41,505 bases of DNA from Truepera sp. bin119. Its GTDB lineage: Bacteria > Deinococcota > Deinococci > Deinococcales > Trueperaceae. The DNA is taken from the NCBI GenBank assembly GCA_002239005.1, contig MPNL01000029.1:1-41505 (forward strand), given 5' to 3'. Both the position numbers and the translations under genes were made by a program. Under the pieces are notes generated by a model. The model made no database searches, was not told the DNA's origin, and was given only the letters and a program-made list of their open reading frames with translations. How positions within the stretch are numbered: position 1 is the first letter of the stretch; the number at the start of each line of letters is the position of its first letter. Below are positions 814 to 21,997 of the stretch, in pieces.

Positions 814-895
814 AGGCAACGACCCGGACCTCAACTCCAACTCCGGCCCGCCTCCGTCTTGGCCTGGTCGGGCCTATAACGGCCAAGACACTGAA

Positions 896-929
896 GAGCC
901 GGGTGCGGTGAAAGCCGCACGTCCGGTTC
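896..929 (+). ncRNA. Group II intron domain V
   Basis: The 34-nt hairpin has the bacterial domain V signature: a lower stem starting GAGCCGG, which contains the catalytic AGC triad and pairs with the terminal CCGGTTC, an upper stem GTGCGG/CCGCAC, a GAAA tetraloop, and the two-nt bulge on the 3' side. It is the most conserved part of the ribozyme and looks structurally intact even though the encoded protein is not. It could still work if a related intron supplied maturase in trans. Confidence 0.88.
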
Positions 930-993
930 AGAGGGGGGCCGACGGAAAAGTGCTCCGGTAACACGGAGTAGCTCGCCGGCGGCCTCCCCTACT

Positions 994-17384: not shown

Positions 17385-18158
17385 TCAGCCGTAGCTCCCG
17401 TGGGGTAGGAAACCGAGGAGTCGGCGCAGGCGTGGGTTGGCGTCTGCGTAGATGTGCTCGGGCATGAGGTAATTCATGAACGGGTAGTACTTGTGGCCGA
17501 TGATGCGACGTGCGTAGGTGACTTGGGTGATGTAGCGGGTGCGGTCACTCCGGTTGGGTCCGCCCCGGTTCCAGACCTAGTTGTTGAACAGAACGACGCT
17601 GCCCGCCCGGCCCAGGTTGTAGTGGATCTGGCTCTCCCACTCGGTGCCCTCGAGCCTCTCAGGGGGCGTGGCGCCGAACAGATGGGAGCGGGGGATCACT
17701 TCGGTGCCGCCGTGCTCGATATCGGTGACATCTGTGAGGTGGTAGTTGGCGGTGAAGAAGAGGACCGGGAGATGCACGTTGGTCGGCGGGTCGCCGTGGG
17801 TGACAATGTAGTGAGCGTGATCGTCCTGGTGCCAGCTGGTGATACCCCCTCCCGGAGGGCTCTGGAACGAGTCGTTGTGGATCACATGGCAGTTGGGGGC
17901 AATCAGCACCTCAGCCAGACTGACGATCGGCTCGAGGTCGAAGAGCCGCACATTCAGTTCGCTCGTCTCGAACAGCCTGTGACTCAGCCGGGTCTTGTCG
18001 CTGATGCGATTGAGACCGTTCTTGTTCTCTCGTAGAGCCCGGTCGAGGTCGTCACGCAAGGTCGTGCACTAGTCGGGCGGCAACACGTTCTCGAGGAAGA
18101 GAAAACCTTCTCGGTGAAATGCCTCCACCCAGGCCTCGAGTTGCTCAGGACTTGCCAT
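17385..18158 (-). pseudogene. Phytanoyl-CoA dioxygenase (PhyH) family, two in-frame TAG codons
   Basis: One uninterrupted frame of 258 codons from the ATG at 18158 to the TGA at 17387-17385, apart from TAG at codon 30 (18071-18069) and codon 194 (17579-17577). The product resembles Fe(II)/2-oxoglutarate PhyH dioxygenases. It has an N-terminal EGFLFLENVLPPD, the iron HxD in SWHQDDHAHYIV (His110, Asp112), GGTEVIPRSHL, and a C-terminal VWNRGGPNRSDRTRY where the 2-oxoglutarate Arg is present. The distal iron His expected three residues after the second TAG is Asn. No frameshift is present. The simplest reading is a recent pseudogene; amber readthrough is the other option but would not restore the missing His. 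A MITE lies 73 bases upstream of the start. Confidence 0.75.
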
Positions 18159-18209
18159 CTGGCCGGCCAGGTACGTGGGTACCCCTCGAGTATCCATGAT
18201 TGAGGGTTT

Positions 18210-18221: not shown

Positions 18222-18492
18222 CCGCTCGTGGGTCGTAACGTGAGATTATCTCTTACCCCCTTCAAGCCGTTCCCAAAACGAAGTTATCTCCGTCTGGAAG
18301 GCGATTTCTCGATGATTCTTCCTTCCCCTGGTACGGGTATAACTCGGTGAAGCTTATTCGAGAACCGCCCCTTCACTCTTCATCATGACCCCCCTACCGG
18401 CACCAATTCCAAAACCACGGATTCTGCCAACGTCTAGTACGCATGTCCTCTGGTAGGGGTGCGAGATAATCTCACGTCACTACCCGCTCGTG
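18222..18492. mobile_element. 253-bp MITE-like element with 9-bp target duplication
   Basis: The element runs from 18231 to 18483 and is bounded by inverted repeats of about 29 bp (18232-18260 and 18455-18483, about 24 of 29 identical). The shared core is ACGTGAGATTATCTC. The 9-mer CCGCTCGTG occurs directly outside both ends (18222-18230 and 18484-18492), the signature of a target-site duplication. No open frame inside resembles a transposase, so this is a non-autonomous element. The parent family is not certain from the ends. Confidence 0.75.
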
Positions 18493-19860: not shown

Positions 19861-20330
19861 CTAAGAGCTTGAACGAAAAGTCATCATTCCCGGGATCAAC
19901 CGATCTTTCCAACCAGTCGGCACCTTGCTACCCGTCGCATCATGAATCGGCAGGCAGCCGGTTTCACCCAAGCCAACGAACTCGCAAGAGTGCGCTCGAA
20001 GTCCTTCGCTAGACGCCGACAGCGACCTAGCCAGGCAAAGGTCCTTTCGACTACCCAACGACGAGATAGCACGGTAAAGCCCTGCTTTCCCTTGGGTTTG
20101 ACCACGATCTCGAGTAGATCGGAGAGTCCCAACTTCTTTGACCTCCCCGCTAGTTTCGGACCCGCATAGCCACCATCGGCAAACAGCTTCTTTACCGTTG
20201 GAGCCCTCGCCAGCAGTTCTAGGATTACGAAGGACGGACTCTTCGGGTCGGTCGTCTTGATGCTCTGGCTGTCGATGACAGCCGCCGTCGGCTCCAGACC
20301 CGAAGCGAAAACGGCCAAAGCCGGGGCCCC
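19861..20330 (-). pseudogene. IS5-family (IS427-like) transposase remnant, copy A
   Basis: Minus-strand translation shows PTAAVIDSQSIKTTDPKSP (first catalytic Asp), then LFADGGYAG (second Asp) and the C-terminal RRWVVERTFAWLGRCRR (catalytic Glu), typical of IS5/IS427 DDE transposases. About 50 residues normally lying between DSQS-KTT and the ADGGYAG segment are missing, and the whole N-terminal third is absent. The left end of the element is near 19861, where it matches copy B at 18760. No matching right end was found. The remnant begins where the IS982-like transposase stops making sense, so two different IS families are joined here. Confidence 0.8.
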
Positions 20331-20396
20331 CCGCTGGGGGTACGGACTCTACGGGTCTACGGGCCCAACGAAGCCCTAAAGGCGGACTCTTCGGGT
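20235..20396. repeat. Motif CGGACTCTWCGGGT, three copies at IS junctions
   Basis: Copies lie at 20235-20248, 20343-20356 and 20383-20396. A partial copy (CGGACTCTACG) lies at 14456-14466 in the miniature element. Each sits at, or within about 40 bases of, a point where one IS sequence breaks off. Confidence 0.6.
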
Positions 20397-20775
20397 TCGC
20401 CACCGGTAGTGGTTTGCTGTCGACCAGATGAATCCGGTTAGCTGTCAGCACTGAGAGGGCGAGCTTGGCCAGTAGCCTTTCGGCATTCCGTAAGATCCGA
20501 TGGTAGCGGGTGTAGTGGGGTAGTTTGGGGAACAGTTCACTGAAGAGTTGGTTGACGATCCAGTACCAGGTACTCTCATATCCAGCGAATCCGTCCTTCG
20601 GTTGGGCAAGGATCTCACCTACGACTGCGATGGTCAAGAGTTCGCTGTAGCTCGCTTTCTGGGCAGGTTGCTGGGGTAGTAGCTTCTGATAGGGTTTGAG
20701 CCAGTCATCGATATAGACGAATACTGTGAGAAACAGGTCTTCTGGCTTATACTGGTATCGGGGATGGGGCTTCAT
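20340..20775 (-). pseudogene. IS982-like transposase, N-terminal half
   Basis: From the ATG at 20775 about 135 residues look like an IS982 transposase N-terminus: YQYKPEDLFLTVFVYIDDWL, SELLTIAVVGEILA, LPHYTRYHRILRNAE and IHLVDSKPLPVAN with the first catalytic Asp. After this the frame reads into a low-complexity stretch and then IS5-type sequence in another frame. The second and third catalytic residues are lost. Twenty or so codons of the same start also survive in the miniature element at 14408. Confidence 0.72.
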
Positions 20776-20860: not shown

Positions 20861-21177
20861 ATGGTCATGCAGGGTTTGGTGCTCAGGTTGAGGGAGCGCT
20901 TGAGGAGTACACGCGCCATCACAATCAGATCCCGACGCATTGGCCGGAGCTCATCGCCGCGCTCCGCGAAAGCGGGGTCAGGAAGATCCGTACCTTCGTT
21001 GCCGAGCCGTATCTCTACCTGTACGCTGAGGTGGAGGATGAAGGGGCCTTTCCACACTTGTGGGACACTGAGGCGCACAAGGAGTGGGCTAAGGTCATGG
21101 ATCCGCTGATCGAGCTCAATGAGGAGCAGAAGCCCAACGCCCGCTTTATTCCCCGGATCTTCACATTTGATGCCTAG
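20861..21177 (+). pseudogene. rhaM: L-rhamnose mutarotase (RhaM), one frameshift
   Basis: From the ATG at 20861 (or 20867) the frame gives MQGLVLRLR, the usual start of rhamnose mutarotases. After a shift of one base at 20887-20896 the other frame continues with ALEEYTRHHNQIPTHWPELIAALRESGV, and later LYLYAEVEDEGAF and FIPRIFTFDA, ending at the TAG 21175-21177. The catalytic-type His in the HH..HWPEL region and the total length of about 104 residues fit RhaM (COG3254), which interconverts alpha- and beta-L-rhamnose. The stop overlaps the start of the SDR gene (ATG at 21170). A sequencing error would make it intact; the location at the edge of the mobile zone makes real decay likely. Confidence 0.72.
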
Positions 21178-21997
21178 GTTGGAGAGCGGCCCCGACCTCG
21201 CTGGCAAGGTTGCCGTGGTGACCGGAGCGAGTCGGGGCTTGGGCAGTCGGGCTGCGATCCGTCTGGCGGAGTGCGGCGCTCGGTTGATGCTCGTGGCCCG
21301 TGGTGAGCGGGGTTTGGCGGAGACCGCCTCGGTGATCGAGAGTGCGGGTGGGCAGGCGACTACTTACCGCGCCGACCTGAGCGACCCCTCGTCGATCGGC
21401 GGTCTTGCGGCCGCCACCCTCGAGCGGCTAGGGCAACCGGCGATCCTGATGAATGCGGCAGGCACATTTGGGCCGGTCCAGTTCATTCGCGACAGCGACC
21501 CGGCGGCGTGGACCGACACCCTCATGATCAACACCGTGAGCGCCTACCTCACCTGCCGCGCTTTCGTCGGCGGCATGATCGACTCGGGCTGGGGCCGGAT
21601 CGTGAACGTCAGTTCGGCCGCCTCACTGCACGAGCCGGGCCCGCTCAATAGCGCCTACGCAACCAGCAAGGTAGCGCTCAATCGGTTCACTCGCCAGCTC
21701 GCTGCTGAGCTGGTGGGCAGCGGGGTGACCGCCAACGTGATCCATCCGGGCGAGGTGAAGACGGAGATGTGGGCCTATATCTGCGACACCGTTCGGGACG
21801 CCGGCCCCGAGGCTGACCGCTACCGCGAGTGGGCTACCATGGTGGAGGAGACGGGGGGTGACGACCCCGACAAGGCTGCCGACTTGGTGCTCGGGCTGAT
21901 GAGCGAGGATTCCGCGTCGGTGACCGGTCGCTTCCTCTGGATTGAGGGTGGTCTGCAGGTGCCCATCCCGAGTTGGGACGATCCTCCGGGCAGGTAG
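21170..21997 (+). CDS. Short-chain dehydrogenase/reductase
   Basis: A classical SDR of 275 residues from the ATG at 21170, which overlaps the rhaM stop. The Rossmann glycine motif is TGASRGLG (18-25), followed by NAAG (95-98) and the catalytic set Asn121, Ser149, Tyr163 and Lys167 (YATSK). The end of the sequence, VTGRFLWIEGG, is the usual SDR C-terminal segment. An Arg at 44 following the second strand suggests NADP(H) preference. The substrate cannot be told from sequence. Coupling to rhaM hints at a sugar such as rhamnose or fucose. A long hairpin begins at its stop codon and could end the transcript. Confidence 0.87.
   Translation: MPRLESGPDLAGKVAVVTGASRGLGSRAAIRLAECGARLMLVARGERGLAETASVIESAGGQATTYRADLSDPSSIGGLAAATLERLGQPAILMNAAGTFGPVQFIRDSDPAAWTDTLMINTVSAYLTCRAFVGGMIDSGWGRIVNVSSAASLHEPGPLNSAYATSKVALNRFTRQLAAELVGSGVTANVIHPGEVKTEMWAYICDTVRDAGPEADRYREWATMVEETGGDDPDKAADLVLGLMSEDSASVTGRFLWIEGGLQVPIPSWDDPPGR

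What the first reader, a model, noticed from the sequence alone, without database searches (positions are those of the whole stretch)
18222..18492. MITE-like element with a 9-bp duplication next to a promoter
A 253-bp element has 29-bp imperfect inverted repeats with the core ACGTGAGATTATCTC and a direct 9-mer CCGCTCGTG on both sides. It sits where the -35 of the PhyH gene should be. The gene below it is now broken by two stops, so promoter loss may have preceded decay.
Basis: partly seen in the sequence, partly recalled or inferred. Interest (0 to 1): 0.6.

Follow-up and report, generated by a model that had tools for sequence, protein, structure and literature searches.

The report
IS1-type miniature transposon beside decayed gene
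This is one of about 40 copies of a small, gene-less jumping DNA element that is very probably moved by the IS1-like transposase of its larger relatives in the same Deinococcota genome; it is an ordinary kind of element, but many of its sister copies carry a puzzling 18-base insert found all over this genome's transposons.

Summary
Window 18231-18484 is a 254-bp element with 29-bp terminal inverted repeats (TIRs) and a perfect target duplication. The genome has 43 DNA matches, 24 of them near full length; 40 relatives have none.

The partner transposon exists. Elements of about 1.35 kb with the same TIRs and 8-bp duplications carry (mostly broken) IS1-like DDE transposases. Intact relatives on Meiothermus and Deinococcus plasmids have similar ends; the Meiothermus copy also has an 8/8 duplication. 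A Caldilineaceae MAG has five identical 176-bp MITEs with these ends, each with its own 8-bp duplication. So this is a MITE family very probably mobilised by IS1-like transposases: a new member of a known kind.

The promoter-loss story is not supported: PhyH has two in-frame TAG codons, but the empty site scores no better as a sigma-70 promoter than the occupied one, and no relative allows dating.

More unusual: an 18-nt insert (AAGGACGGATTCGCTGGA, about 137 places) sits frame-neutrally in transposases and in 13 of 24 sibling MITEs, without a duplication and mostly before TCNG. The window copy is an empty site for it.

The parts
18231..18484 (+). MITE, 254 bp, no substantial ORF of its own
   Evidence: TIRs, duplication and 43 genomic matches; longest ORF inside about 40 aa, not conserved
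18231..18259 (+). Left terminal inverted repeat, GGTCGTAACGTGAGATTATCTC...
18456..18484 (-). Right terminal inverted repeat, GGTAGTGACGTGAGATTATCTC... on the minus strand
18223..18230 (.). Target site duplication, left copy, CGCTCGTG
18485..18492 (.). Target site duplication, right copy, CGCTCGTG
18448..18449 (.). Empty site (CATGTCC/TCTGG) at which 13 of 24 sibling MITEs carry the 18-nt insert AAGGACGGATTCGCTGGA
   Evidence: alignment of copies, gap-free empty sites
17385..18197 (-). Neighbouring PhyH-family gene with two in-frame TAG codons (18069-18071, 17577-17579); not part of the element

Best explanation
The element is a MITE: a non-autonomous DNA transposon whose ends are recognised by the DDE transposase of IS1-like insertion sequences, present (mostly decayed) in the same genome. 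That transposase would bind the shared end (GGTMGTRRYGTGAGATTATCTC, with its GAGATTATCTC palindrome), excise or copy the element, and join it to target strands cut 8 bp apart, which leaves the 8-bp duplication. Shown: shared ends, the 8-bp duplication on both the MITE and the larger elements, and an IS1-like transposase with conserved D, D, E between such ends here and in Meiothermus. Inferred: transposase binding and mobilisation in trans, since no movement was observed. The insertion beside PhyH is a by-product, and its effect on that gene is unknown.
For: 43 matches in the genome; 8-bp duplications on MITEs and IS copies, 10 of 38 pairs against 0.3 expected; IS1-like transposase between the same ends (NF033558 E 1.4e-9, PF03400 E 4.8e-8); D, D, E invariant in five relatives; Meiothermus plasmid IS with similar TIRs and duplication GACAGTTG 8/8; relatives annotated IS1 transposase; five identical 176-bp MITEs with these ends and five different perfect 8-bp duplications in a Caldilineaceae MAG.
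Against: No fully intact transposase copy was seen in this genome (best: a 342-aa open frame with short inserts and stops upstream of it). The MITE interior does not match the IS interior. IS1 model scores are below the curated cut-offs for this divergent group (only PF03400 on L095 passes). No orthologous empty site could be compared.
Confidence: 0.93

Rival explanations
1. The MITE arose as an internal-deletion derivative of an IS1-like element of this genome and its interior has since diverged beyond recognition, rather than from ends that captured unrelated DNA. Mobilisation is the same; only the origin differs.
For: About 33-35 bp of end sequence is shared, including ACCCCCCTACCAG just inside the TIR of L042.
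Against: No interior similarity beyond chance to ten IS-like copies, although MITE copies are still 76% identical to each other on average.
Confidence: 0.3
2. Insertion removed the PhyH promoter, and the gene decayed afterwards.
For: The element starts 33 bp upstream of the ATG, and the -35 position of the only TACAAT falls in the TIR.
Against: Best sigma-70 score with TACAAT is the same at the reconstructed empty site (8 of 12) as now (8 of 12, TTACGA-17-TACAAT); no site at scan threshold. Order of events is not datable.
Confidence: 0.1
3. The transposase and ends belong to the ISL3 family, which also makes 8-bp duplications, not to the IS1 group.
For: Weak ISL3 model hits (PF13542 E 4e-4, NF033550 E 5.5e-5).
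Against: The IS1 model is much stronger on the same protein (8e-14), the DDE part matches PF03400, and annotated relatives are named IS1.
Confidence: 0.04
4. The repeat is kept as a regulatory hairpin RNA or DNA element, not as a mobile element.
For: Folds much better than shuffles (z -5.2 and -5.5).
Against: The stem is the TIRs themselves; copies carry 8-bp duplications, many copies are truncated, and no Rfam family matches it.
Confidence: 0.02

Closest known systems
IS1 family insertion sequences, group with one ~1-kb transposase ORF (annotated IS1 transposases of Deinococcus peraridilitoris pDEIPE01 and D. wulumuqiensis pDrdI; related unnamed copy in Meiothermus taiwanensis pMtWR-220)
   Same: Ends starting GGT with a GTGAGATTATC-like core in Meiothermus and D. 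peraridilitoris, 8-bp duplication in Meiothermus; the larger elements of this genome encode relatives, 46-48% identical in protein
   Different: The window element has no transposase and its interior is unrelated
Bacterial MITEs in general (Correia elements, MITEAba12, QMITEs; review PMC10969869)
   Same: Short, TIRs, target duplication, multi-copy, no transposase of its own
   Different: Different ends and partner; no promoter activity known or predicted here
176-bp MITE of Caldilineaceae bacterium CHL12 (L079, L081, L082, L084, L085)
   Same: Nearly the same 22-bp end and 8-bp duplications
   Different: Shorter, unrelated interior, copies identical (recently active)
For the 18-nt inserts: Rickettsia palindromic elements (RPEs; PMC10969869)
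   Same: Repeats inserted into open reading frames without breaking the frame
   Different: RPEs are about 150 bp and lie in host genes; these inserts are 18 nt, leave no duplication, and are seen mostly in transposons

Membership tests
MITE | Short element with terminal inverted repeats | tested here: met
   254 bp, 30-nt arms 87% complementary
MITE | Target site duplication | tested here: met
   8/8 at this copy; 10 of 38 TIR pairs against 0.3 expected
MITE | Multiple copies in the genome | tested here: met
   43 matches
MITE | No transposase of its own | tested here: met
   Longest ORF inside about 40 aa; copies differ by indels not in threes
MITE | Ends shared with a transposase-bearing element | tested here: met
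   L059, L060, L061, L062 and others
MITE | Moved in trans by that transposase | not testable with these tools
   Needs a transposition assay
IS1 family (partner elements) | IS1-type DDE transposase | tested here: met
   NF033558 E 2.7e-9 and 8.2e-14, below its curated cut-off; PF03400 E 4.8e-8, above its cut-off, for L095; D, D, E invariant in five relatives
IS1 family (partner elements) | TIRs beginning GGT and a duplication of about 8-9 bp (from own knowledge) | tested here: met
   GGTCGT/GGTAGT ends, 8 bp
IS1 family (partner elements) | Placement inside IS1 in a transposase phylogeny | not tested
   No reference set of IS1 subgroups was at hand
ISL3 family (considered) | ISL3 transposase above cut-off | tested here: not met
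   NF033550 22 bits against a cut-off of 180
REP / RAYT elements (considered for the 18-nt insert) | Y1 (TnpA-REP) transposase in the genome | tested here: not met
   PF01797 absent in this 97%-complete genome, found in 5 of 14 controls

The most novel reading that the evidence does not exclude
The MITE family records the movement of an ultrashort mobile insert. AAGGACGGATTCGCTGGA (18 nt, open in all six frames) enters DNA without a duplication, mostly just before TCNG, and is found in transposon sequences of several families, where it adds six residues without breaking the frame. With a second hairpin family (CGGACTCTTCGGGTCCG, about 150 near-copies) it would be a class of frame-neutral micro-elements moved by an unknown activity.
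Probability: 0.35. Interest if true: 0.75.

Novelty: new member of a known kind. Interest (0 to 1): 0.42.

Why it matters
It ties a MITE family in a Deinococcota genome, with like-ended MITEs in Caldilineaceae, to IS1-like transposases, so these ends can be used to annotate such elements. The larger reward may be the 18-nt inserts: the MITE siblings give clean filled and empty sites, which makes the question of how so short a sequence spreads directly testable.

Tried and rejected
No TIR or 18-mer match in viral contigs. No MITE in 40 relatives, so no orthologous empty site; one paralogous near-empty site (L042 against L123, 80%) was found. The REP/RAYT idea for the 18-nt insert fails for lack of a Y1 transposase. 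Paper searches for IS1-type MITEs, ISMhu11 and short in-frame inserts gave nothing on this. The structured-RNA idea was set aside: no Rfam match to the element, and the fold is explained by the TIRs. Simple recent internal deletion of a known IS copy: not seen, no interior homology. A 9-bp duplication: the 9-mers match poorly across copies while the 8-mers match.

Full report
Observation. The element runs from 18231 to 18484 (254 bp). Its ends are inverted repeats (30-nt arms, 87% complementary), and the core 15-mer occurs only at these two places in the window, where 0.06 matches would be expected. The direct repeat is real. In 38 TIR pairs collected from the genome, 10 have at least 7 of 8 matching flank bases; shuffled pairings give 0.3 on average and at most 3.

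Copies. The window lies in a 3.2-Mb, 91-contig genome with 43 DNA matches to the element and none in 40 genomes of the same family or order. The rpoB protein is by far closest to a group of polymerase chains that I recognise as Thermus (1iw7 and others) among solved structures, so the organism is most likely a member of Deinococcota; I could not name it further. 24 near-full-length copies are on average 76% identical to each other. The window copy is 90% identical to the consensus and 85% to its nearest sibling. The family is old, although the perfect duplication here shows that this insertion has not decayed at its borders.

Partner transposon. Pairs of the same ends also stand 1.3-1.4 kb apart, several with perfect 8-bp duplications (L059 CGACGGCG, L060/L043 CAAGGGGC, L061 GAGCTTCT). 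Between them lie mostly broken transposase genes that match IS1 models; the best preserved (L062 = L095) has a 342-aa open frame. An alignment with a relative from the same family of bacteria (G009, L093) and with Deinococcus and Meiothermus plasmid transposases keeps D90, D151 and E243 of the first sequence in all five rows. The strongest independent check is that the intact Meiothermus taiwanensis copy is bounded by GGTAGTAGAGTGAGATTATCCC and GGTAGTTAGGTGAGATTATCTC with the 8-bp duplication GACAGTTG. A scan of one genome per species for the end pattern returned a Caldilineaceae MAG with five identical 176-bp MITEs, each flanked by its own perfect 8-bp duplication. A Rubrobacter contig shows the same end followed by a stretch that by eye reads like the transposase N-terminus (not tested further).

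Mechanism. Shown: shared ends, shared duplication length, an IS1-like DDE transposase between such ends. Inferred: binding to the palindrome-containing end and mobilisation in trans. The interior of the MITE does not match the IS interior, so its origin is either an old deletion derivative that diverged or ends that captured other DNA.

The gene next door. PhyH (17385-18197, minus) has two in-frame TAG codons and no frameshift. A neighbouring gene, 21119-21997, ends in TAG, so plain nonsense is the likely reading. The element lies 33 bp from the ATG. Rebuilding the empty site shows no -35 better than the one present now (8 of 12 matches with TACAAT in both), and the scan finds no sigma-70-type site at its threshold.

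Unexpected: 18-nt inserts. In 13 of 24 near-full-length MITE copies the sequence CATCTCC/TCTGG is split by an 18-nt insert, consensus AAGGACGGATTCGCTGGA; the window copy is an empty site. The genome holds 137 places within 2 mismatches of the 20-mer AAGGACGGATTCGCTGGATC (control 0). There is no match at 1 mismatch in 38 other genomes of the family and no exact match in 110 other genomes of the phylum. Among 125 copies read there are 44 distinct flank pairs; some are probably diverged or recombined versions of one site, so 44 is an upper figure. Several sites have gap-free empty counterparts in sibling elements, which fixes the insert at 18 nt with no duplication; for the sites seen only once, the best hit was the filled site itself, so those have no empty counterpart yet. 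The right flank is mostly TCNG (T 36, C 34, G 34 of 44). In the transposase alignment the inserts appear as blocks of six residues (DPANPS, GRIRWI) absent from the relatives, and a longer block around DRTLRVRP is also in frame. By the motifs visible in their reading frames, hosts also include IS3-, IS66-, IS1595- and rve-type transposases (my reading), an ImmA/IrrE-type protein (PF06114) and the window's own IS982-like gene (NF033520). A second hairpin, CGGACTCTTCGGGTCCG, has 152 near-copies against 3 for the control. No Y1 transposase was found. I have no mechanism for this; it is reported as noticed in passing and as the novel case. The loci read were chosen partly by transposon ends, so the share of inserts in transposons is not a fair estimate.

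Verdict. Observation confirmed, MITE reading supported and extended to an IS1-like partner, promoter story unsupported. New member of a known kind.

Noticed in passing
Genome-wide, 137 places at up to 2 mismatches (e.g. L009:721, L110:4665 on the minus strand, L121:1041); in the window 20581-20598 (-); empty site in this MITE at 18448/18449: An 18-nt insert AAGGACGGATTCGCTGGA, without target duplication, mostly followed by TCNG, in MITEs, several transposase families and an ImmA/IrrE-type gene, in frame where a relative could be compared.
   Followed up: partly
Genome-wide, 152 places at up to 2 mismatches; in the window 20235-20251, 20383-20399 and, weaker, 20343-20359 (inside the IS982-like gene region): A second short hairpin repeat CGGACTCTTCGGGTCCG, control 3, also seen inside transposase genes.
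   Followed up: partly
L062:1049-2399 and other IS1-like copies: A third, longer insert of the kind CGGACAAGAGCGGCTTCGTTGGAGCTTCGGGT, also in frame in the transposase of L095.
   Followed up: no
window 19861-20775 (-): Decayed IS982-like transposase (NF033520 E 1.9e-7) carrying the 18-nt insert, 1.4 kb from the MITE.
   Followed up: no
window 894-992 (+): Rfam match to a group II catalytic intron domain (RF00029, 50 bits).
   Followed up: no
L079:1511-1686, L081:4502-4677, L082:4568-4743, L084:2380-2555, L085:3885-4060: Five identical 176-bp MITEs with the same kind of ends in Caldilineaceae MAG CHL12, each with its own perfect 8-bp duplication: a recently active family.
   Followed up: partly
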